Shown here one piece after another: positions 4,917 to 54,354 of a stretch of DNA of 64,000 nucleotides. The translations under genes were made by a program, and so were the position numbers. Under the pieces are notes generated by a model that made no database searches, had not been told where the DNA came from, and saw only the letters and a program-made list of their open reading frames with translations. Source of the DNA: Coniferiporia sulphurascens. Its lineage: Eukaryota; Basidiomycota; Agaricomycetes; Hymenochaetales; Hymenochaetaceae. How positions within the stretch are numbered: position 1 is the stretch's first letter; each line of letters begins with the position of its first letter. The stretch covers positions 62,001 through 126,000 of the forward strand of contig NBBA01000022.1 in NCBI GenBank assembly GCA_002794785.1. The letters are read 5' to 3'.

Positions 4917-6184
4917 ATGTCCGTTCGCTTTTACACTCCGCTTCCTGCGCGGCCAGCGCGAATATACGCATCCCCCGGCCTTAGCCCTAGTTATTATGGT
5001 CAGCCCGGTTACGGCTACGCGGCTCGACCAGCTACTGCTTATTCGCAAGCGCCGTACTTCGCCAGCTCCACCGCGTATTATCGTGAGCGTTTCTTTCGTA
5101 CACCTCTTCTCATCGAGGTCGAATTGTCCGCTAAACGTAAAATCCTTTCCTGTGGCGTGAATTTGCACCCCAGCAGCCGGTCAGCTTCACCTTACTCAAC
5201 CCGGTTATACTAACCCCATGGTCTACAATGTCATCCGACCCCGCCGCCGGCTCCACAGTGCAGAGCACTATAACTACAGTCGAACCTCCCATAATGAATT
5301 GGGGTCGGTGGAAAGGAAAAATATCCATTATAGGAGGATATCCAGTAAGAGAGTCCCATTCTATTATGTAATTTTTATTTATATACTAAATTACCAAGAT
5401 GGGAGTAAAGTAAATATTGTAAGACTTAAAATGTGTCACATATTGCTGGGTTATGGAGGGGCAAACCATTCCCTCTTGACCTCTTACCACCACCATCTCA
5501 TACTCTATTGCCAATGTGCAACAGAGTGCAGCTCTGGTGCTTGACAGGGGGGATCCATCTAAGGGAGGGGGTCTGAGTGGTTTGCAGACACTACCCTAAC
5601 CATACCCCAGTGGGCAACTGCTGGGGGGGCTATGACGTTAATGCCTGCAGTGGGGGGCCTAGGGCAAGGGGGACATCCAGTTTCCCATTGTCACCCCCCA
5701 TCACTTCTGCCCCTAACAAGGGTAGACCCCACTGGTGGTCATGCAGATGAGTAAGTCCTCGGCTTTCTCACACCAAGAACAGCTGACTGCCACCATGCGG
5801 TGGCAATGCTGGCCTAGAGCATCTATTGTTGGATTGGTGGCAAGTATGGGGTTATGGAAGTTTTATAAAGACTTCATGGGTAATGGTGCTGAACTCCCCA
5901 CCTGAAATATGCAGATGGTGGCACTCGTACCCTAAATTTGTCTGATGATGTATGTCTTTTCCCAGCTTGCCCACCTTGTTGCATTCCTCCCCTGCCAGAC
6001 ATATGGCATCCCTCCTTTATCTGTTATGATACCCCCATCAGGCCTCAGCCCCCACACCGCCCATGCCTGTGACAACTCCCTTTGTATCCAACCTCCCACA
6101 GTGCGGTTCGCTACACCCTCTCCCACTGCTAGCATCCCCTTACTATTACACCCTCTTTACCACTTACCCTCTCCATCTTGTCTG

Positions 6185-7310
6185 TGTTAAGCTCAATGGT
6201 TACTCGGTGATCAACATCAGGGCTTCCTGATCATCAAGGCTGATGGTGATGGCAACGGGGCTTCCTAGATGCTGGTAACAAAGTTGATCGACAGTGGGGC
6301 TTCCTGATTGTCGAGAAGGGATGCAAGGTTTCCTTAGAGGAGTCAGGTTATGATGAAGTGCCAGATGACTGTTAAGCTCAACGGTTACGCGGTGATCAAC
6401 GTTGGGGCTTCCTGATCGTCAGGACTGATGGTTACGGCAACAGGGCTTCCTAGATGTCGTAAGTCGAAGGTGATCGTCGATGGGGCTTCCTGATCGATGA
6501 TGTATACGTGAGGTGCTTCTGAGGGGCAGTCGGGTTATGACGAAGTGACTAGTGGCACACTGGCGCACAGTAGACTGGTGGTAGCAGATAATAGGCTTGT
6601 ATGAACAAAGAGCACAAGCTTAGGGCTTGTGCTACTGAAGTTACATGCTTATATGCTACTCTATGTGTTTGCTACTGTAGCGACTTGGTTAGGTATGTTT
6701 ACCAGACTATGGAAGGTCATGGAAACTCAAGGAAGGCCTTGGTGATACAAGTATGGTGATCAGTAAGCAAAGCACATCATGATGGTGCAATAAGGCGTCA
6801 TCATGGTGTCTTATGGCGCAAGGTGAATAAGGATGAGTAAGGCAGAGAAATGGGGGAGTTGCGCTGACTGATGATGACGAAGAGGAAGTGAGTCAGTGCA
6901 TTAGGGGAAAGTAAAGGAAAATTGTAACAATGACAAGGTAGAGCACACGAGGGCACTGAGGCGCATATAATGGGCTTGTATGAACAAAGAGCACAAGCTT
7001 AGGGCTTGTGCGATCTACGTTACATGCTTATATGCTACTCTATGTGTTTGCTACTGTAACATCTTGTGTAAGGTCATTTACATGGCTATGGAAGGTCATG
7101 GAAACCCAAGGACTGTCTTGGTAATACAAGTAAGGTGATCAGTAAGCACAGCATGTCATGATGGTGTGGTATGGCATCATCATGGCATCTTATGGTGTAA
7201 TGTGAAATAAGAATGAGTAATAGAGAGAAATGGGGGAGTTGTGCTGACTGAGGATGACGAAAGGGAAATGAGTCAGTGCAATAAGGGAAAAGTAAGGAAA
7301 AAATGGAACA
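6185..7310 (+). repeat. Older solo LTR (561 bp) interrupted by a younger solo LTR
   Basis: It starts TGTTAAGCTCAATGG and ends in GGAACA. It is flanked by a perfect 5-bp duplication GTCTG at 6180-6184 and 7311-7315. Subtracting the inner LTR and its duplication leaves 561 bp, the same length as the other two members of the family. No internal region, primer-binding site or pol sequence is present, so it is a solo LTR left by recombination. Its terminal sequence (GGAACA against the canonical TAACA) and many internal differences mark it as older than the LTR inside it. Confidence 0.88.
6370..6929 (+). repeat. Younger solo LTR (560 bp) nested in the older one
   Basis: It has TGTTA...TAACA terminal inverted ends, is 560 bp long, and is flanked by a perfect 5-bp duplication ATGAC at 6365-6369 and 6930-6934. 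It is closely similar to the solo LTR at 53120-53679. The differences I compared by eye are mostly C/T and G/A transitions. The palindromic block AAGCTTAGGGCTTGTG and the AGTCAGTGCA tract recur in all three LTRs. Confidence 0.9.
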
Positions 7311-7873
7311 GTCTGGTCAATCTCTACAGAGTCATTGGTAATTTGTAGATGTATAGGCCACTCAAGGGGGACCCTATGGGCCCCCAGGCACATTTTGTCC
7401 ATAGTCATGACACGCTTTCTAGAAATGCATTTAAAAAAAAAAAAAAAAACGGAGGGGCAAACTGAATGTGACTAATGTGTACCGCATAATCGGGTTTTAG
7501 CATTGATTATAAACGGAAAAAGTGTAAGCAAATGTCTATATATAGTAGTTTATACAGCCGAGTTTACCTCTGATAATGGATATACCTATTAAATTTTCAA
7601 AATTTGTTATTTGTTATGCATTATCGATTTTATTCATTATCTTATAGGGAATCCCTGACTACCGACTTGGTGGAAGCCCCAGACTACCCATTATGGGAGG
7701 ATATTCATTATGAGAATGATCCATTATGGGAGGTTTGACTGTATGGTTATAGAGGCGATGTCGCCGATGACGGGGAATGCTGTTGCTGTGGTCCGCGGAG
7801 CAATGGCATATACGGCCCGCAGTACGGATACGGCTACGACGGGGGGTGCTGCGGATGTTTTGGGCGTAGGTAA

Positions 7874-8277
7874 GTGTGCATTTTCCTAATTTGTTGAGGT
7901 ACTGACGCTCCTTACGTTGGCTAAGTCATGATGGCGGCTACTATTGAATTTACTCGAGGTGTATGGAAAACGTGCCGGCTGCAAATCACACCAACTACGA
8001 GTTTGCTGGAGAATGAAAATCGCGAAGATAATATTCAGAAGTGTAATTTAATGCTGATTTTATTGACATTTAATTGTTCTGTTTTCGCTTGGCCTTAGGC
8101 CGGACTTTCGTGTATTCTCGCTACGATACTTAATACTTTAGTCAGTATCTAATGGATAAGATGCAAATAGTGTAGTACTTTTTATTTCCTCAACTGGTTC
8201 GTTGGATACCTATAGCGACGTTTATTAAGTAACCTCCACGTGGGTTGACCCACAGACGCATCTTATTAGCGTTGCCA
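7874..8277. other. Intergenic, nothing recognised
   Basis: An AT-rich stretch without a convincing ORF. It would contain the 3' flank of the broken Gly/Tyr-rich gene, or a last exon if the donor at its stop codon was used. Confidence 0.5.
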
Positions 8278-19173: not shown

Positions 19174-19725
19174 TATCACCGTCCTTCGGACGTCCTGCAG
19201 TACTGGTGGGCTGCGGCACGGTGTATGGTGACGTGACAGTTTCCGTTATGCGTTACTACTCCACATTCGATGCAGTACGTAATAGTACAGTCAATCACCG
19301 GCTAATGGGATACCTGAGCTTGTCAAGCTATTTTTCGTAGTACATTACTCAACATCCGAAATTAAAAAACATATTCACGTTCAGTGAGAAAGTAGCTATC
19401 TATATACAAAATTTGAGAGGAATCTGAGCAGAATTGACTGAGCTATAGCGGAATGGAGAAATCTGGCAAAATTGGGCCTTCACCAATCTTCGGCACAGGT
19501 CTTTCCCACGATAAGTCAAACTCGTTTTTTTTTTTTTTTTTTTTTTTAAATGCATTTCTATAGCACGTCATGACTATCTAGTACAAAATACGCTCCAGGG
19601 GCCTTTAGGCCCCTGTATTATGTGAGATGGGGATTGTTATAGAAGGAATAATCGTGATGGGACGCCATAAGCGGAGAAGGGGTCTGGGCAAGTGCCAGTG
19701 AAAAAGGGAAAGTGTGGTATCTGGA

Positions 19726-22700
19726 CTAGTTGCCAACGGCATAACCTGAGTCAGATATATGTACCACCATGGGGCCCCCCGGGTCAAAGACAAGGATGGG
19801 TTCCACCTTGAAGGCGGGGTGAGAGTCTAGGAATGAAGCCAAAATTGGGAGACCATCCTTAGAGAACCATTGGGCTTCCGTGGAGGGTATGGGCGTTTTC
19901 CACACCGCTTTACGAGTGGTGAGTGTGTTGGGGCAGGAGAGGAGGAGGTGAGCTCGTGTCTCCGGAACGTGGCAGAAGGGACATAAAGGGTCGCATCCCG
20001 GAATGCGTCCAAAGTAAGCACCAAAACCGGCGTGACCAAGGAGTGTCCGGAAAACTTTGCACTTAGTGCGACGACCAAGGGTGAGGTTCTGCATGAGGGC
20101 AGACGGCTTAGTAGTGGGATTCTGCATGGAGCCCATGGAGTGGGTGTCGGATGTCCCTCGAGATTTGCGACAGGCGGAAGCCCAGTCGGTCTTCCATTGT
20201 GTGAGTGCCGTAGAGGATGCTGCTTCCCGGAGGAAGCGTATAGTAGGTGGGAACTGGGTAGTGCCCGGGGGAGGGTTGTCCACAATGCCAGAGGCGAGGA
20301 TGTCAGCAAATTCGTTTCCTTCCACATTGGAGTGTCCCGGGACCCAGTGCAGGTGAAAAAATACACTAGGGAACCGCTTGGTGGCGATTCTGAGGCATTT
20401 CCGGATGAGAAGGGCAACGTTGACGCCTGGGGCCGGATGGGGGTCGGCAAGGAGTGTAAGAGCTACCTCGCAATCGGTGTAAATTTCCACTTGCGTGACG
20501 GCAGGGTGTAAATCGTAAGAGTATGCCAATAGCCAAGCGGCATCAGCAAGTGCGGCTAGTTCGCAGTCCGTAGCGTGGACTGAGGAACCGAGATAGGATT
20601 CGCGTGTGAGGACTGCCTCACCGCGATAAAACCAGATGCCGGCGGCCCCGCCAGCGTAAGAGGATGGGGACGAGCCCTTTCGGGAACCGTCAGTATAGAT
20701 AAGGAGGCGAGAGGGGACATCCTTCAGTCGGTCAATAAGACCATGGTGGGACTGAATGAGCACGTCTCGGGCTTCTTGGGAGTGGTCAATCACGCGGTCG
20801 ATGCTTACGTGGCGTAATGCTGGTAAGGCAATCCACAGCGGGCGAGTGTATCGGGGAACTCGTTTGCACCCGGGAGGGACCCGGTTAACGAAGGAGGCAG
20901 TGATGGAGCCTTTACGCGTGGAGCGTATAGGGAGAAGGGTGTGCATGGTGGTAAGATAGCGGATTGCCGCACGAGATTTCGTATGCTCTAGGCGGAGGGG
21001 GATGGGCAGTATGGAGGCCAGAACCTCAGAGGGGCCGCGTGGAGACGTGCGCCATGATCCAAGGATACAGCGGCACACAGCGGATTGCACTAAAGTCATT
21101 TTCTCACATAGGCCTTTTTGCCGTTTGCCCGTAAACCAGAGGGGGGAACCCCATAGTAGAACCGGCAGAATGCACCCAATGTAGAGGTGTCGGAGGTGGA
21201 GCGGGTCAAGGCCACGTAAAGTGTTGCCTAGTAATTCCAGGGCGCAGAGGGAAGACATGGCTTTAAGGCACATGCGTTCGATGTGAACCGTAAACCGTAA
21301 TTGCGTGTCGAAAAAGATGCCCAGCCAGCGGAAAGGCCGGGAGGGTACTATTCGAAGGGGCTGAAAGCCCTGGCGCGGCAGATGGATAGGGTAAATGAGG
21401 GAGTCTTCGTGTATATCGTGTCGATGTGTCCAGTGGATGAGCTCTGATTTGTCATCATCCAGGGAGAGTCTGAGAGTGCGACATGTGGCGGAGAATGAAA
21501 CGTAAGCCTGTTCGAGGCGTGCAACGTTAGTTGCAATGGAACCCGAAGAGGTGGTGAGGAGGTGATCGTCCACGTATGCACGAACGAAAACGAGAGGGTC
21601 TGAGACCTGGAGGGAGGTGAGAAGGCTTGTCGCAAATAGTGCAGACAGGATGGGTGAAATGGGGGAGCCTTGAGGAACGCCCATATTAGGTATGGGGGTC
21701 AGTGTGTCAGTGAACCCGTCAAAGGACAAGGCCACGCGACGGTCTGAAACAAAAGACAGAACCCAAGAGACAATGAGAGGGGGAAACCCTAATTCTGTGA
21801 GGACGGCAAGTAAGCGGGGGTGTTGGACTGATGGGAAGAAACCCGCCACATTGACGGCCAGGGCCGATGTGACGTGGTGCTGAGCCCATGCAGATTCAAT
21901 TTCGTTTACGAGATCCGAGGCGGCATCCAGGACACCCGACTTTTGGTGGGTACCGAATTGGGTAGAGGGTAGCGCACCTAGTTCGTTGGCAATGAACTGG
22001 ATGCGGTTGGCGATGATCTTCTCGAGTAATTTGCCCATGGTTTCCTCGAGAGTGATAGGACGGTATGCGTTAAGGGCGGTAGGGTCTTTCTTATTGAGTT
22101 TCCGGAGCATCACCACCTTAGCGTCCTTCCAAGGACGGGGGTGGTGTCCCGCATTCAGGCATTCGTTATAGAGTGCTAGAAGAGGAACACTGTGGACGGC
22201 ATGCAAGCTTTTGAGGGCCTGGTAGCCGACCCCTGTAATGCCCGGGGCACTCGAATTAGAAGTGAGATTGAGGGCGTGGTCCAGTTCCTCCATAAGGATA
22301 GGATGGTCACGCTTAGGGCGGGTGGCGACAAAAGAGTATGTCGGGGGGAGGGTGGCGGAGGGTTGGGTACCAAAGTACTTAGACCGGAAGGCCGAAGCCT
22401 TCTCCGCAGGTGAGTTCGCGGTAGAGCGTCCCGTAACCAAAGAGGGGATTGGGGCATGTTGGGTGCCCATTGCCCATTTCGCCATTGGCCAGATCTTGTC
22501 TGGCTTGACGGATGCAGTAAACGAGTCTGCCCATGCGCGTTTTGCGCGACGAAAGATACCGGCCGACTCACGTCGGAGTATGGTACGAGTTGCCGGGGAA
22601 GCTCCGCACAAAGCGGCCATGTGGGCACGGCAAGAAGCATCCCACCACTTGACCTTGTGACCCCCTGCCTTCCGAGAAGAAGGGGGGTGTGAGGAATCCG

Positions 22701-23646
22701 TGGCAAGGACCAACGCAGCGTGGACGGCAGCGACTTTGACATCCAGGAGGTGAGAGGTGGCGCCTGAGAGGGCGAAGGCAGCTGTGAGGGGTTCATCCAA
22801 GGCTTCCAACCATTCAGTAGAGAGCGAGTCATCATACTTAGGGTGTAGGAAGGGATCAATGAACGGCGCAGAAGAGGTGGGGACTGACCAGGTGATAACT
22901 GCATGGTCGGATCCGGATGGAGTATCCCAGGACCATGTCCAGGAATCGCCCAAAGCGAGGTCTTCCAGAGATGGGGAAGCCCAGGCGAGGTCGATGACTG
23001 ATTCAGTGAATTGGGTGGAAGGGCGGTGCCGGGTATCGAAGCCCGGCTGATTAAGGATGTGCATGGCGTGTGAGGCTGCCCAGAGCTCCAGAGGACAGGC
23101 CTTTTGCACGTCGCTAGCAGAGTGGGTGCCATGATCCCAGTGGGTGGAATGGAGATTAAAATCCCCAGCAACCAGCCAATGTGCACTCGGAGGAAACTCG
23201 AGTAGAGCGAGAGAGGAGATGGTTTCTTTTTTATTCGCATCATGGTTGTATACATTAGTGACAAAAAGAGGCCCAAGGCCAGTGTCAAAAATTAGCATGA
23301 GTATGTCTCGGGATGGGGAGCGCGAGGCATCCAAGATCACCCAAGACAGAGGGATAGACTGGTGGACCAGTGTGACCACACATGGACGTGTTAGTTCATT
23401 GCCTCCCACAGAGGGGGGTACAAAGACGTGGTAGTTGGGCATAGCAGGGAAGCCGAAAACGGGTGTACCTGATGCTGCAAACATAGAGGGGGAGGCACCA
23501 ATAGGGTACCAAGGGGGTTCCTGCAGAAGAATAACGGCAGGCGGGAGGGTAGCACCGGGGGTTGACGAGAAGGAGTGGACAAGTGCTTCAACGTGCACTC
23601 AGGACGTTGCAACATTGTGTTGCATAAACGTCCAGGGACTACTCAT
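19726..23646 (-). pseudogene. LINE ORF2: endonuclease-reverse transcriptase-RNase H, one in-frame TGA
   Basis: From the ATG at 23646 the frame runs about 1306 codons, interrupted only by TGA at 23599-23601. Domains in order: exonuclease-endonuclease-phosphatase (GDFNLHSTHWD, IDLAW, SGSDHAVITW), reverse transcriptase (YRPITLEETMGKLLEKII, MGVPQGSPISPILSAL, catalytic AYVDDH), RNase H (IYTDGSRKG, CELAALADAAW, IYTDCEVAL, HWVPGHSNVEGNEFAD) and a C-terminal CPFC...H...C zinc knuckle. The stop lies in a TCC-TGA-GTG context in the first 17 codons, and a single C-to-T change from CGA would explain it. The start overlaps the ORF1 stop by 8 nt (ATGAGTAG), suggesting translation by termination-reinitiation. 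All catalytic motifs look intact. Confidence 0.92.
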
Positions 23647-24475
23647 CAGCCGGGGGTGGGGCGAAAGAGGAACGGGCATGGCCTCGCTGTTTGGGGCAGC
23701 TAGAAGAGTTGGCGCGGTGTTCGCTGGAACAGTTCGAGCATTTGGGTGGGTGGGTGCAGGGGGAGGAGGCTGGAAGGGCATCCCGTACACATCCCGGGCA
23801 GCGCATGCGGTGGTCTTCAGTACGATGACAGCCAGCGCATATGAGGCACGCCCATGGACGGTTCCTGCAGTTCTGGACAAGGTGACCTAATGCTGCACAC
23901 TTAGTGCACTGCATGAGGCGGGGGAGGTCACGGCGGGCCACCAGTTTAAGTCGGCGTCCGAACATGTAGACGATGCGGTTCCTCGGCGTGGAGAGGATGG
24001 CCGCAGAGCGTGAACCCGTAGGGTCTTCAAAGGAGAAGGCGATAGGGGCTGACATGACGTCCTCACCCAAGAGAGCATAGGCCCGGGTCCAGTCGGGCTC
24101 TAGCGTCATTGGGAGTGAGAGGAGGTGAGGGTTGGCGGCACGGAACTCCGTTTGGAGTTTGGCCGCCGTGAAGGCGGGGAGGCCTGGCGACATGCGCGTG
24201 GGGACTTCAGCAATCTGGAGGCAGGCCCAAGATACAAGTTGGGAGACTGTGGCAGGATAGACGCTTTGCACGGCTGCCATCACAACTTCCCTCACGCTGT
24301 TCATAGTAGGGATGTGAGTGTTGTGAGCGAACGTAACGAAGCAATTGCCTCGGTCGTTCCAATGGGCAGCTCGTACAACCAGTTTGGCCGCAGTGGGGAA
24401 GCGTGAGAGGGCAGTCCTGACGTTGATGGTTGTCTGGGAATCCTGACTAAAGGGTTCTCTTGCGAGGCCCACCAA
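23639..24475 (-). CDS. LINE ORF1: CCHC zinc-knuckle nucleic-acid-binding protein
   Basis: The open frame is at least 278 codons. The position of the first ATG is uncertain because the frame has no ATG at 24475 (a TTG is there), and the first clear internal Met is MNSVREVVMAAV. The C-terminal half carries a canonical CX2CX4HX4C knuckle (CTKCAALGHLVQNC) followed by two further Cys/His clusters (CLICAGCHRTEDHRMRC and CSNCSSEH), the arrangement of gag-like proteins of R1/I/Tad-type LINEs. It would bind the element RNA to form the retrotransposition particle. It overlaps ORF2 by 8 nt. Confidence 0.85.
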   Translation of the reverse strand: MVGLAREPFSQDSQTTINVRTALSRFPTAAKLVVRAAHWNDRGNCFVTFAHNTHIPTMNSVREVVMAAVQSVYPATVSQLVSWACLQIAEVPTRMSPGLPAFTAAKLQTEFRAANPHLLSLPMTLEPDWTRAYALLGEDVMSAPIAFSFEDPTGSRSAAILSTPRNRIVYMFGRRLKLVARRDLPRLMQCTKCAALGHLVQNCRNRPWACLICAGCHRTEDHRMRCPGCVRDALPASSPCTHPPKCSNCSSEHRANSSSCPKQRGHARSSFAPPPADE

Positions 24476-26218
24476 ACGACTACACCTTCCTCGGGATATG
24501 GGGTTCCCACGCCCCTCCCGCTGTCCCCCGGGTTACCCCGGGGCGTGTCTGCGTGTCAAGGAATCAACTTAAGCAAGGCAGTGGGAATTACCCCCACGCC
24601 TACCCATGGCAGATTTAGTACTCTGCGGCCGATGAAGGGAACTACCCCCCACTGCCCCGGCCCGCTTTTTCACGACGGGGAAGCCACTATGCCCAGAAGG
24701 CTGTGAGGACTAACACCCTAGCCGCTACTTGAGTTTCCCGATTCCCCGCATGCGCTTCAGACCCCAGGTGTAACCCTAGAGAATATGTGGTTTAACTTAG
24801 TTGCCCCACTTCTGGATCCGCAGCATACGGGGATTACCATGTCGCACAGGTGACCCCGGCCCCCTAGCATTGGGAAGAACCAGGGAGTTACCCATACTAA
24901 CCACCTGAGGACGCTCCCACAGGATGATCCAAAGGCCCGTGGTGACCTGTCTCTAGCCACCCTTCCACAGCGTCGGGTCAGGGGCATCGAGTCGGTTGGT
25001 TCTTACCGCGACGCCACGTGTTATGAGACCCCTATTCCTAGGCAGATTGCCGTCATCAGAACCCTTCCGGGATTTGGGGTGGCAGTTTTCACTGTCAATG
25101 CCAGGGACAGTGGGGTCCCCCGAAGGAGATTGCTCGGAACAAGCCGACCCCCTGGAGACGAGGATGATGTCCGCCGGACCACCTCTCCCCTGAGGACGTT
25201 AACGTCGTGTCCTCACCGATGGGCAGGCTAGTGCGCCTCTCTCGTGCCTTTGGCTAACCCGCTGGCATGCTAGAGCCAAGAACTCACACACAGACGGAGA
25301 GCCCCCCTCCCCACCAGAGCCAACCCTCAGACGGGCCAGATAGCAAGGGACGAACTGCAAACCCCCCCCAGCGCCCCTCCTAAGTGAAGGAGATGGTGGT
25401 GGTAAGAGAACAAGAAGGGATGTAAGTCAAACTCGTTACAGTATAATTAATTATTTCGGCTATAGGAAAAGGCTAAAAAAGGAAAGAGTAGCACCGTGAC
25501 GACCAAAGGGAAACTTCCATAAGAGGTAAACAGATCTACATTAGTAACCGGGAGGTTGTGGTAACTTTTGTTTTTCTTCTTTCTCCACCATTTCTTTGTC
25601 AATTGCAATGATTGTTTGTCCGAGATGAGGCCCACATTCACTGGATTTATATACAGCAGAAATTTAACACTTATATGCAGCATTATATGTACTATTTTCT
25701 GTGACTCTTTATTGACAAGTTTTAATTTCGAAGTTTTTATGAGTAATTTCTAGTTTTCTTGCTGAATTCTGGCTCAAAAAGTTTGAAATATTTTATTCTG
25801 AATCAGAGGTGTATTTCCAGCTGCAAAATGCAAAAACAATGAAGAAATTTGAGTGGATACAGCATGTTCTAGCTAAGTGTTTCAGTGACCGGCATTGTCC
25901 CATTAGCCGGTGATTGACTGTACGACCAGCCACCCGCTAAGGGACTCGTTTGTGGACGAAAGCTCTGCTCAAGAATTAACGATTCTCTGGAGCCTCTCTG
26001 ATGGCACTGGCACATCCAAGTTTTCTTAAATATAACCTCGTCACTGTTGCAACGTTTTAGTCGACTGTATGCTTTGGCGAACTCGTTTCCGTCGCGTTCG
26101 TGAACGCGTGTTACTTACATAAATGTATCACGTGAGCGTGTTCACCTCGTTGGCTTTGCCTCGCTCGTCATTGTCTGTAACGTCGGCGACTGCTCCCTCC
26201 CTCTTCCCGTCCCCCGAC

Positions 26219-46122: not shown

Positions 46123-47217
46123 TTATGCATTGGCCATTTCGACGTCTGCATCCTTTTTGACACCTCTGCTCTTGGCGGCAGCGTCGATTTTACACCACAC
46201 TTTGTGATATTTCCACGCCTTCTTCTGACACACCGGGCCGCAATACCTTGAACCTCCACGGCACCTGGAACACTGTGCCTTCGGCGAGGCTTTGCCGCAA
46301 TACGCGCAAAACATCTCCTCGCCGCGAGTGATCTTCTCCAGACGCGCGAGCACGAGCTCTGCAAGCTCTTTCGCAGGCTTTGCTTTCTCCTCGTCTCGCG
46401 GAGACCGAATGCTTGCAGATAGAACAAGGTCCAAATCCACTTCCGCGGCAGACGCAAGGAGCGTATGGTGGTACTCCTTCAACTTCTCCATCGCAAACAT
46501 TTCGCCGCCTAGGCCACGCATCCCAAGCATCAGCGAGACAAGGTCGACGGCCACACGCCCGTCGGTATCGATGTCCGTAGTGGCAACATCTAGTTCGCCA
46601 AAGACGAGGTACATCCACGACGTGCTGAGAGTACGATCGCCCGTAAGGTACTGAGACATGCCGAACTTGTAAGGTCCCAAATCGGGTCGCGGAATGAAGT
46701 TGCAGATATACGTCGTCTTCTTCGGCAAGACCTGCACCTCCGCAACAGTAAACGAACTTGCTCTGCACGTTGTGACGTATCCCTGCGAAGTACGCACGCG
46801 CAGCATGGTAGATTCTGGGAGATTGTCGAGGACGAATTGCAGTGTTTGGGCGAGCATGAAGCCGCTGTCCTGATGTCTAACGCGCCAAAAAATTGTTTCG
46901 ACCTCCTCCGTGTCGAGTTCCCGCGGGCATCTGATCTTCTCGCATAGGAAATTGGCCGGTTCTATGGGCCGTGCGTTGGACGGGATTGTTGTCGGCTCCG
47001 TCAGGAAGTAGCCCACTTTCGGGGCCGCCTCTTTCATCCAGGCGTCCTGAGCTTCCAAGGGGATACAGGACGCAGGCCAAGCGCCATCGCAGACCTCGAG
47101 TAGGCGAGAGTGCATGAAACGCGGTTCGGTGAGCAGGCGTTCGCGCAAGATGACGCCCGCGAGATCGTGAAGGTCGAGCGTCAGGTTTTCGGCGAAATTG
47201 TACGACTTTTGGTCCAT
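46123..47217 (-). CDS. MYND zinc-finger protein, intronless
   Basis: An uninterrupted 364-aa ORF starts MDQKSYNFAENLTLDLHDLA. Residues 304-342 form a MYND finger: CAYCGK, CSRCRG, RYCGPVCQKKAWKYHKVWC, with all seven Cys and the His in place. The preceding 300 residues have no recognised domain. MYND fingers mediate protein-protein contacts, often with proline-rich partners. Basidiomycete genomes hold many such proteins of unknown role. The lack of introns stands out against every other host gene in this window, which could reflect a retrocopy origin or simply loss. Confidence 0.88.
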   Translation of the reverse strand: MDQKSYNFAENLTLDLHDLAGVILRERLLTEPRFMHSRLLEVCDGAWPASCIPLEAQDAWMKEAAPKVGYFLTEPTTIPSNARPIEPANFLCEKIRCPRELDTEEVETIFWRVRHQDSGFMLAQTLQFVLDNLPESTMLRVRTSQGYVTTCRASSFTVAEVQVLPKKTTYICNFIPRPDLGPYKFGMSQYLTGDRTLSTSWMYLVFGELDVATTDIDTDGRVAVDLVSLMLGMRGLGGEMFAMEKLKEYHHTLLASAAEVDLDLVLSASIRSPRDEEKAKPAKELAELVLARLEKITRGEEMFCAYCGKASPKAQCSRCRGGSRYCGPVCQKKAWKYHKVWCKIDAAAKSRGVKKDADVEMANA

Positions 47218-49349
47218 GTCTCAGAAGATGCTTCCTTAGTGCGAGTTGTTCAGAGCAGTTATAGAAAGCGAGCAAACTAATTGTAGGTATATCTTTGCCG
47301 TCGACTGTCGCCCAATTGAAGGGGTGATTTGACGACCATGAACGTCGGAGGCGCGGGATGCACTGAGCCACGCGCCGCCACGCGGATTATCGAGTGCTGA
47401 TCTCAGGAGGCTGGCAAACGCCGGCATGAGTCACCCAGCGCGTTTGTTTACGTAGAGATACGGATGTACTCAGGAAATCATAACTCCATTCTGTAGAAGA
47501 AGGGAGGGAATCTATAGCGATGTGGGAATACAGAAGGCGGGACGAATATAATATAAACTGCGAAAATAATATAAACTGCGAAAGTTGTCCTCGGCATACG
47601 TGAGATAAACGCTGTAAGCACGGTCCGGATTCGGGCATCCTTTGATGCGAATTGACTTTTAGGCGGAGGTTCAACATTTCCTATTTGGAGTGGACACGAT
47701 CACAAGGATAAATTGAAGCCGGCAGCCGCAGAAGGCGAAGCGGATTTGTATGGGCTGAACGCTATCAAAGTGCAAGGCGCATCATTTCTTTTACTCTATG
47801 GGCGTAGACCTTTCCGGGGCTGTTTCGAATTCGCCGAGCTTGGACCCAGCCACAGCGGATCAGGCTCATCTATCGATTCATAAACGGTTGATTGATGGCT
47901 GGTCGTCGTCCATGCGTCCGAAGTCAGTCTCAACAATCTGGGGGGCGATCGAGGTCGAGCCAGGAGCTCGAGGCCAGTCGGTATGCAGGTCGGAAGTATT
48001 CGAGTGGAGCTGCAGCAGGTCGACGTCGTGCCCACCGGAAAGGAGTCAGGTGTCCTCCAAGATAACTCCGCGGGCGTCGAACGTGTTCAGACAACTATGG
48101 GTATAATACATGGTCTCTGCCCCTTGCGGTGTTGATATGACCGGGCGTCTAAGCCGGGGACCATTCGCACGCCCCTTTCTTTTTCCTTTTTTTTCCTTCC
48201 TCCCCTGGAATTTGATTTCGGGTGGCTCTTCCGCCCTTTGGCAGAGCCTTGGTGGCCATGTCCGGCCGGGTCTTGATCCTTCGGGTCGTAAAGCACGATT
48301 TGTATTGCGGATAAAACGTGTTTACCTAGAAACAAAGCTGGCAGTGCTGCCGCAGAAGTACAGCTCCCGCGCAAATGCTGCGTGCGTCGATCTGCGTTAT
48401 ATTCAAATTGCCAGTGGACGATACTTGGGTATTAAGTTTACAGGATAAGGTGGAGAGTCTGTATTGACTATGGGATCACGGTTCCCGCAAATCCTGGCCG
48501 GTAGTACTGCTGGCTGATTCTGCTCTGGGTCGTTAGCACGAGGCGGCGCCACTTGTTTCCCGCGGGTCAGCCGCTGCAAATCCGCAGAGGTTTCCGCCGA
48601 TGCTGCCTGCCGTAATACCTACATCGCCCGTGTTGACGGTCTTGTCCGCGCAGAATCAGACTGCAGCCGGCATCACCCCACACGATGGCGCGAAGCCTTG
48701 GGCTTGCGTGTCTTCCGGGGAAGATACGTACGCATATACTCGACGACGGCGGGTAGCGGACGCCACAAGGATGTCGACTTTCGGGGTGCACGGTCCTAAT
48801 GAGGCACTAGCAGGGGATTTGATAAGTAGAAGGACAGCGAGGAAGGAGATGCTTGTATTTTTTTCAGAGTACTGAGCAGCCCCTGAGATCAGCACGGCCC
48901 AGGCGGTGCCAGCGTGTACCCCCTCATTAGCCGAGAGCGAGTTGCCCTGGACGAGAGGCAGAGAACGGAATCCGATCGCCATCTCCGGTTCAATGCAGCC
49001 ATGGACGCCGTTAGCCACACCAGCCGCTCGCCTTGTGCATTTACTGGACTGCCCTCGCTGCACCCGAGTTTCTGATCTGGATTGTTGGCGAGCCACAGGG
49101 GCGAGGGGACTCACAGCTCGCGGCTCGCGAAGGACGGCCCATTGTTGTTCTGCACGCTATCACAAGCACCTTTGGCTAGACTGGGCCACACGGAGGTCAC
49201 ACGGGCCACACAGCTGCGCGGAGCGCGCTTCGTCTCAAGCCACATCCTTGCGGAGACTATAAGGGCTCCAGTCTCCTGCACCGCCCTCCCCTCTCCGCCC
49301 TCCTTCTCCACCGCCCACCACCACCCCCCCTCCCGCCCCTCCCCTCCTA
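47218..49349. other. Long unassigned stretch upstream of the MYND gene
   Basis: Contains an 18-bp tandem duplication (unit TAATATAAACTGCGAAAA, about 47549-47583), and ORFs of 80-150 codons at 47800-48450 and 48600-49114 on both strands. None shows a recognisable domain or a splice-linked continuation. The segment 48570-49100 is GC-rich with ORFs on both strands and may be a decayed gene. The CT-rich stretch at 49260-49345 is the likely promoter and 5' UTR of the next gene. Confidence 0.45.
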
Positions 49350-53067: not shown

Positions 53068-54354
53068 CAGTCAATCACCGGCTAATGGGACAATGCCAGT
53101 CACTGAAACACTTGGCTAGTGTTAAGCTCAACGGTTACATGGTGATCGATGTTGGGGCTTCCTGATCGTCGGGGACTGATGGTATGGCAACGGGGCTTCC
53201 TAGATGTTGTAAGTCGAAGGTGATTGTTGACAGGGCTTCCTGATCAGCGATGTGGACGTGGTATGCTTCTTAGCAGGGTCGGGTTACGACGAAGCGACTA
53301 GTGGCACACTGGTGCACAGTAGACTGGTGGTAGCAGATAATGGGCTTGTATGAACAAAGAGCACAAGCTTAGGGCTTGTGCTACTGACGTTACATGCTTA
53401 TATGCTACTCGATGTGTTTGCTACTGTAGCGACTTGGTTAGGTGTGTTTACCAGACTATGGAAGGTCATGGAAACTCAAGGAATGCCTTGGTAATACAAG
53501 TACAGTGATCAGTAAGCAAAGCACATCATGATGGTGCAATAAGGTGTCATCATGGCGTCTTATGGTGCAAGGCGAATAAGGATGAGTAAGGCAGAGGGAT
53601 GGGGGAGTTGCGCTGACTGATGATGATGAAGAGGAAGTGAGTCAGTGCATTTAGGGGAAAGTAAAGGAAAATTGTAACAGCTAGAACATGCTGTGTCCAC
53701 TCAAATTTCTTCATTGTTTTTGCATTTTGCAGCTGGAAATACACCTCTGATTCAGAATAAAATATTTCAAACTTTTTGAGCCAGAATTCAGCAAGAAAAC
53801 TAGAAATTACTCATAAAAACTTCGAAATTAAAACTTGTCAATAAAGAGTCACAGAAAATAGTACATATAATGCTGCATATAAGTGTTAAATTTTTGCTGT
53901 ATATAAATTCAGTGAGTGTGGGCCTCATCTCGGACAAACAATCATTGCAATTGATAAAGAAATGGTGGAGAAAGAAGAAAAACAAAAGTTACCACAACCT
54001 CCCGGTTACTAATGTAGATCTGTTTACCTCTTATGGAAGTTTCCCTTTGGTCGTCACAGTGCTACTCCTTCCTTTTTTAGCCTTTTCCTATAGCCGAAAT
54101 AATTAATTATACTGTAACGAGTTTGACTTATCGTGGGAAAGACCTGTGCCAGGGATTGGTGAAGGCCCAATTTTGCCAGATTTCTCCATTCTGCTATAGC
54201 TCAGTCAATTCTGCTCATATTCCTCTCAAATTTTGTATATAGATAGCTACTTTCTCACTGAACGTGAATATATTTTTTAATTTCAGATGTTGGGTAATGT
54301 ACTACGAGAAATAGCTTGACAAGCTCAGGTATCCCATTAGCCAGTGATTGACTG
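53068..54354. mobile_element. Second copy of the 722-bp MITE, carrying a solo LTR
   Basis: The ends CAGTCAATCACCGGCTAATG (53068) and the inverted CCAGTGATTGACTG (ending 54354) are flanked by TA at 53066-53067 and 54355-54356. Subtracting the solo LTR (53120-53679) and one 5-bp duplication leaves 722 bp, the same as the copy at 19288-25920. It lies between the divergent genes pml1 and the BTB gene, replacing an ancestral gap of about 374 bp with 1.66 kb. It keeps the uninterrupted LINE target at 54116-54130. The 78-codon ORF inside (53870-54106) resembles no transposase. Confidence 0.9.
53120..53679 (+). repeat. Solo LTR (560 bp) in the MITE
   Basis: It has TGTTA...TAACA ends and a perfect 5-bp target duplication GCTAG at 53115-53119 and 53680-53684. 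It has the same length and close sequence as the LTR at 6370-6929. The empty site can be read in the other MITE copy (near 25868-25876, inverted), where no LTR is present. Confidence 0.92.

What the first reader, a model, noticed from the sequence alone, without database searches (positions are those of the whole stretch)
4917..7873. Five-level transposon nest inside an exon whose reading frame closes when the nest is removed
Seen directly: gene exon > TA-flanked MITE (469 bp) > non-LTR element (TSD GGAGGGGCAAAC) > solo LTR (TSD GTCTG) > solo LTR (TSD ATGAC). Every level has an exact target duplication, giving an unambiguous insertion order. The codon interrupted at 5276 (TA) is completed by the T at 7744, and a coherent Cys-rich C-terminus follows. 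The retained C-terminal frame without stops suggests that the first (MITE) insertion is fairly recent or that the tail is under little decay. That conflicts mildly with the presence of an old, diverged LTR inside, so some inner insertions might have predated transposition of a composite MITE.
Basis: seen in the sequence. Interest (0 to 1): 0.8.

Follow-up and report, generated by a model that had tools for sequence, protein, structure and literature searches.

The report
Four nested transposons in fungal reading-frame
A small possible fungal gene has been split by four mobile elements that landed one inside the other; the order of insertion is clear and each element belongs to an ordinary repeat family of the same genome, so this is a tidy but ordinary transposon nest.

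Summary
The nest is real. In a basidiomycete genome close to Coniferiporia, a 469-bp TA-flanked MITE (5277-7741) holds a LINE-derived non-autonomous element (5467-7450), which holds a solo LTR (6185-7310), which holds a second solo LTR of the same family (6370-6929). Each level has an exact target duplication, and uninterrupted copies of each family exist elsewhere in the genome, so the order is fixed. Joining the flanks gives one 132-codon frame once an apparent 91-nt intron is spliced. That this is a gene is inferred: no homologue was found and codon tests do not support the frame. None of six other full MITE copies carries the insert. Side lead: LINEs of the parent family sit inside this MITE family more often than chance predicts (4 of 59 sampled tails; about 0.05 expected), twice at the same site.

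The parts
4917..5082 (+). putative exon 1 (MSVRFYTP...), 55 codons plus one base
   Evidence: open frame, ATG start; one match in the genome; no homologue
5083..5173 (+). apparent intron GTGAGC...CCCCAG, 91 nt
   Evidence: splice-site look by eye and frame rescue; not tested by RNA
5174..5276 (+). putative exon 2, left part; ends in the TA target
5277..7741 (+). MITE with all inserts; own sequence 5277-5466 + 7463-7741 = 469 bp; terminal inverted repeats 5275-5299/7719-7743 (TA included)
   Evidence: TA duplication 5275-5276/7742-7743
5467..7450 (+). LINE-derived non-autonomous element with inserts; own sequence 5467-6184 + 7316-7450 = 853 bp; poly(A) end; duplication GGAGGGGCAAAC 5455-5466/7451-7462
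6185..7310 (+). outer solo LTR with insert; own sequence 6185-6369 + 6935-7310 = 561 bp; duplication GTCTG 6180-6184/7311-7315
6370..6929 (+). inner solo LTR, 560 bp, same family as the outer; duplication ATGAC 6365-6369/6930-6934
7744..7873 (+). putative exon 2, right part (Cys/Gly/Tyr-rich tail, TAA 7871-7873)
   Evidence: one match in the genome; no Pfam family above cut-off
5277..5544 (+). read-through of the exon frame into MITE and LINE-derived element: open for 89 codons counted from 5275, TGA 5542-5544
19531..25422 (-). full-length LINE of the parent family (CCHC-like ORF 23639-24532; endonuclease-RT-RNase H ORF 19726-23598; 12-13-bp duplication containing GAGTTTGACTTA), sharing 5' 33 nt and 3' 77 nt with the nest element
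   Evidence: CCHC match below Pfam's cut-off, E 0.081

Best explanation
Four ordinary transposition events happened in sequence at one spot. (1) A non-autonomous TIR element (MITE, Tc1/mariner-pogo style) inserted at a TA inside a short putative coding exon. (2) A non-autonomous derivative of a resident LINE inserted into the MITE by target-primed reverse transcription, leaving a poly(A) tail and a 12-bp duplication. (3) and (4) Two LTR retrotransposons of one high-copy family inserted, the second into the LTR of the first, and each collapsed to a solo LTR by LTR-LTR recombination. The host reading frame is interrupted: the message would read through 89 codons of transposon sequence to a stop at 5542-5544 and lose its Cys-rich tail. 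Shown: structure, order, family membership of every layer. Inferred: the transposition mechanisms, the recombination, and that the flanks are a gene.
For: Exact duplications at four levels. Uninterrupted relatives of each layer: 6 full MITE copies, 4 LINE-derived copies, 33 LTR copies with 22 exact duplications. LINE relationship: first 33 nt 88% and last 77 nt 80% identical to the ends of the LINE at window 25422-19531. Divergence bounds agree with MITE before LINE-derived element: MITE 26 private changes of 469; LINE-derived element 8 nest-specific, plus 16 unresolved, of 690 against its nearest sibling. Frame closes over 132 codons. Low amino-acid entropy of exon 1 (P 0.0075) and tail (P 0.001) against dinucleotide shuffles.
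Against: No homologue of the host frame in a database of 5.8 billion proteins, although that database holds proteins of Coniferiporia, Phellopilus, Phellinidium and Sanghuangporus; the search needs shared 5-residue words and an annotated protein of fitting length, so a short unannotated orthologue would be missed. Synonymous codon usage does not favour the frame (log-odds +1.3 over 128 codons; exon 1 and the tail each score better in other frames). A codon model trained on three ORFs scores the exon 1 and tail frames at -5.6 and -6.3, and 55% and 71% of random nearby stretches have a best frame at least as good. The left part of exon 2 shows no low entropy (P 0.87). The inner LTR's terminal branch (0.043) exceeds that of the element that holds it (about 0.012-0.035); both are upper bounds, but it is not a clean agreement.
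Confidence: 0.85

Rival explanations
1. The flanks were never a gene; the MITE landed in non-coding DNA and the closing frame is chance.
For: No homologue, no Pfam family above cut-off, codon tests neutral or unfavourable. A shuffled 42-codon tail is open 19% of the time, the shuffled left part 5%.
Against: Spliceable intron, ATG, 132 codons open after joining. Gly/Tyr/Cys enrichment in the predicted frame of the tail (24 of 42; 0 of 5000 shuffles reach it) and of the left part (19 of 89; P 0.0002) (residues chosen after seeing the sequence). Low entropy of exon 1 and tail.
Confidence: 0.3
2. Composite transposition: the MITE already carried the LINE-derived element, with or without LTRs, when it entered the exon.
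For: Cut-and-paste would leave no sibling, so a single-copy composite cannot be excluded (inference; no call shows it).
Against: None of six other full MITE copies carries it. The nearest sibling of the LINE-derived element (C1) sits in other sequence with its own duplication, with no MITE match in the loci around it. One other LINE-derived copy (L061) does begin inside a MITE end, but of another subgroup and about 35 nt from its left end, not at the nest's site.
Confidence: 0.07
3. The gene survives as a chimera: its C-terminus is now 89 codons read from MITE and LINE-derived sequence.
For: The frame is open to 5542-5544. All six other full MITE copies have a stop in that frame within 38 codons; the stop of the nearest relative (codon 34) falls in the cluster of nine differences at MITE positions 99-110 by which the nest copy departs.
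Against: Few changes suffice to open this frame; no expression data; no known function of the head to preserve.
Confidence: 0.08

Closest known systems
Nested TE insertions (plants, fungi)
   Same: Younger elements inside older ones, each with a target duplication.
   Different: Compact (2.5 kb), three transposition classes, all borders exact, inside a putative small exon. Precedents seen only as search listings (PMC3903597, PMC4522978).
Tc1/mariner-pogo type MITEs
   Same: TA duplication, TIR beginning CAGT, short, many copies.
   Different: Autonomous partner not found: 6 DDE_1 (PF03184) matches, none inside the TIR pairs (coordinates compared). Superfamily assignment recalled.
Non-autonomous retroelements that borrow a LINE's enzymes (Marasmius oreades: a family not predicted to encode reverse transcriptase and suggested to use that of MarorLINE-5; PMC9674265, passages seen)
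   Same: No coding of its own seen; likely dependence on a resident LINE; poly(A) end and 12-14-bp duplications here.
   Different: About 853 bp with both ends shared with the window LINE and a middle part that does not align to it; no Rfam or tRNA match.
Solo LTRs
   Same: TGTTA...AACA ends, 5-bp duplication, high copy number.
   Different: One inside another of the same family; superfamily not determined.

Membership tests
MITE (TIR, TA type) | terminal inverted repeats | tested here: met
   25 nt, 92% complementary; 88 genome hits to the end motif (up to 3 mismatches) against 1 reversed-control hit
MITE (TIR, TA type) | TA target duplication in independent copies | tested here: met
   6 of 6 other full copies
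MITE (TIR, TA type) | mobilised by a related autonomous transposase | tested here: inconclusive
   PF03184: 6 matches, 0 inside TIR pairs; other transposase families not searched
LINE-derived non-autonomous element | poly(A) end and variable-length target duplication | tested here: met
   nest and 4 uninterrupted copies (one duplication with one mismatch)
LINE-derived non-autonomous element | ends shared with an autonomous LINE | tested here: met
LINE-derived non-autonomous element | moved by that LINE's proteins | not testable with these tools
   inference from shared ends
SINE (tRNA, 5S or 7SL derived) | RNA-gene-derived head | tested here: not met
   no Rfam match at gathering scores (L057, L058, window), no tRNA (5 loci)
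Solo LTR | TG...CA ends with 5-bp duplication, one LTR and no internal region | tested here: met
   both LTRs; 22 of 33 other copies with exact duplication
Transposon-disrupted gene | homologues join the two flanks | tested here: inconclusive
   no homologue of any kind
Transposon-disrupted gene | transcript from the locus | not testable with these tools
   no RNA data

The most novel reading that the evidence does not exclude
The resident LINE family and its non-autonomous derivative use these MITEs as landing pads. LINE 3' ends lie inside TIR pairs in 4 of 59 sampled copies (about 0.05 expected from about 32 kb of MITE sequence). Two of them are at the same position of one MITE subfamily but carry LINEs only 79% alike while the MITE parts are 98% alike, which points to independent hits on one site. 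The nest is then one outcome of a target preference that steers LINEs into short elements already inside or near genes.
Probability: 0.35. Interest if true: 0.5.

Novelty: new member of a known kind. Interest (0 to 1): 0.3.

Why it matters
As a nest it is a clean relative-dating example in a basidiomycete: three transposition classes, four exact borders and uninterrupted relatives for each. If the LINE-into-MITE preference holds, it would offer a testable case of one transposon class serving as a safe or preferred target for another in a small fungal genome. The disrupted frame matters only if it proves to be a gene.

Tried and rejected
Rejected: tRNA- or 7SL-type SINE for the non-LTR element. 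Rejected: dating by the outer LTR's 0.108 terminal branch, because most of the 33 comparison copies came from a query whose hits were inner-like; a search with the outer part alone found a relative at 92% over 375 nt. Rejected: open tail as evidence of youth. Led nowhere: homologue searches for the host frame, Pfam for the flanks (one search read the tail in a wrong frame, corrected), codon tests, transposase partner by DDE_1. Early scripts put the outer LTR borders off by one to three bases; corrected. Paper searches for a like case or for this genome; no listing seen there described this nest or this genome; of these papers only PMC9674265 was opened (passages).

Full report
Source. The window is G000:C22:62001-126000, in a 39.35-Mb, 31-contig genome. 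A MYND-domain protein of the window (46123-47220, minus strand) is 85% identical to a Coniferiporia weirii protein and 61% and 59% to proteins of Phellopilus and Phellinidium, so the organism is a basidiomycete close to Coniferiporia (order Hymenochaetales, recalled). A guess at Coniferiporia sulphurascens is from memory.

Observation. The nest was re-read base by base and its borders fixed in scripts. The MITE is 5277-7741, flanked by TA; without its insert it is 469 bp. The LINE-derived element is 5467-7450, flanked by GGAGGGGCAAAC. The outer solo LTR is 6185-7310, flanked by GTCTG. The inner solo LTR is 6370-6929, flanked by ATGAC. Inner and outer LTR belong to one family but differ by 21%.

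Independent proof of each layer. MITE: six other full copies of 463-469 bp, contiguous where the nest is interrupted, all flanked by TA, 6.8-7.9% different from the nest copy; four partial copies (L050-L053) were left out of the counts. LINE-derived element: four uninterrupted copies on C2, C7, C15 and C18, 83-86% identical, each with its own 12-14-bp duplication (one with one mismatch) and without the LTR (40 of 54 and 40 of 103 candidates scored). LTR: 40 of 960 candidate places were scored; among 33 other full copies in held loci, 22 have an exact 5-bp duplication (duplicates and one copy at a locus edge dropped from the list).

What the non-LTR element is. Its first 33 nt and last 77 nt match the two ends of a 5.9-kb LINE in the same window (25422-19531, minus strand). 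That LINE has an endonuclease-reverse transcriptase-RNase H ORF, an upstream ORF with a sub-threshold CCHC match, and its own duplication. Genome copies of the last part lie behind LINE coding sequence in 6 of 6 loci examined (L081-L086; in L082 with some 370 nt in between). No Rfam or tRNA match. It is best called a LINE-derived non-autonomous element, not a SINE of RNA-gene origin. Its nearest sibling, on C1, is 92-95% identical over three pieces, has its own duplication, shows no MITE match in the loci around it, and was itself hit by LTRs, one of them 27 bp away from the nest's site. That is an independent insertion.

Order and age. The order is given by the nesting. Divergence gives upper bounds only. 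The nest MITE has 26 private changes in 469 sites; the six others have 0, 2, 3, 3, 3 and 5. Nine differences from its nearest relative lie together at positions 99-110. Against the C1 sibling, the LINE-derived element has 8 nest-specific, 13 C1-specific and 16 unresolved changes in 690 sites. The inner LTR's terminal branch is 0.043, the outer's 0.108, in a tree of 35 sequences sampled mostly towards the inner one. The inner value is somewhat above what its host element allows, so part of it must predate insertion or reflect sampling.

The host frame. With an apparent intron 5083-5173 spliced and the nest left out, the flanks read 132 codons from ATG 4917 to TAA 7871-7873. TAA lies within AG|GTAAGT; an intron 7871-7925 would give another ending. 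Exon 1 and the tail each match only themselves in the genome. No homologue was found for the left part or for the joined frame, with 1 and 21 word-sharing candidates, although proteins of Coniferiporia, Phellopilus, Phellinidium and Sanghuangporus are in that database. Codon tests do not help: synonymous usage gives +1.3 log-odds over 128 codons and other frames of exon 1 and tail score better; a three-ORF codon model scores exon 1 and tail at -5.6 and -6.3, which 55% and 71% of nearby random stretches reach in their best frame. Amino-acid entropy is low for exon 1 (P 0.0075) and the tail (P 0.001) but not for the left part of exon 2 (P 0.87). Gly/Tyr/Cys enrichment is strong in both parts, residues chosen after seeing the sequence. 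I put the gene at about 0.65-0.7.

Decay. Simulated neutral decay with indels leaves the tail open with probability 0.85 at 1%, 0.51 at 4% and 0.40 at 5.5%; head and tail together 0.59, 0.13 and 0.05. So the open tail says little. The open head plus tail hints weakly that the insertion is younger than the MITE's full private divergence, or that the head is still under selection.

Read-through. In the nest the exon frame continues for 89 codons from 5275 to TGA 5542-5544. All six other full MITE copies have a stop in that frame within 38 codons. This allows, but does not show, a chimeric protein.

Side lead. From, 59 distinct LINE-type 3' ends were gathered (34 of the 40 rows, after leaving out six rows of the LINE-derived kind, nest included; all 40; these are the scored parts of 103 and 131 candidates). 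Four lie inside the 43 TIR pairs formed from the 112 end hits (26 ends stayed unpaired); about 0.05 are expected from an estimated 32 kb of MITE sequence (P 2e-7; P 0.0015 if that estimate is ten times too low). All four are in the set; in the set alone it is 1 of 40, so the excess rests on few copies. One (C7) shows a 15-bp duplication on both sides, at a site that is uninterrupted in 3 of 3 copies of its MITE subgroup. Two, on C1 and C6, follow the same MITE position with LINE parts 79% and MITE parts 98% identical. Accessibility, AT content or gene conversion could also produce this.

Verdict. A well-resolved, ordinary transposon nest in a probable but unproven small gene.

Noticed in passing
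window 19531-25422 (minus strand): Full-length LINE with two long open ORFs and a 12-13-bp duplication; perhaps young, and the likely helper of the nest's LINE-derived element.
   Followed up: partly
window 53120-53679: Another solo LTR of the nest's family (91.8% to the inner LTR), flanked by GCTAG on both sides.
   Followed up: no
C7:791811-794913, C6:1161158-1168787, C6:1858759-1862162, C1:4964503-4971579: LINE 3' ends inside MITEs of the same TIR family, two at the same MITE position.
   Followed up: partly
L093 (C16:343730-345110): A different TA-flanked TIR element nested inside a 626-bp-type MITE.
   Followed up: no
L061 (C6:1975411 onward): A LINE-derived copy begins about 35 nt inside a MITE left end: another nest of the same two kinds.
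   Followed up: no
genome-wide: TIR pairs fall into size groups of about 208, 470, 540-573 and 626 bp, so one TIR family seems to comprise several MITE groups.
   Followed up: no
L042, L080, L062 (C1:1714-1733 kb): Dense pile of LTRs of the same family inside and around the sibling LINE-derived element.
   Followed up: partly
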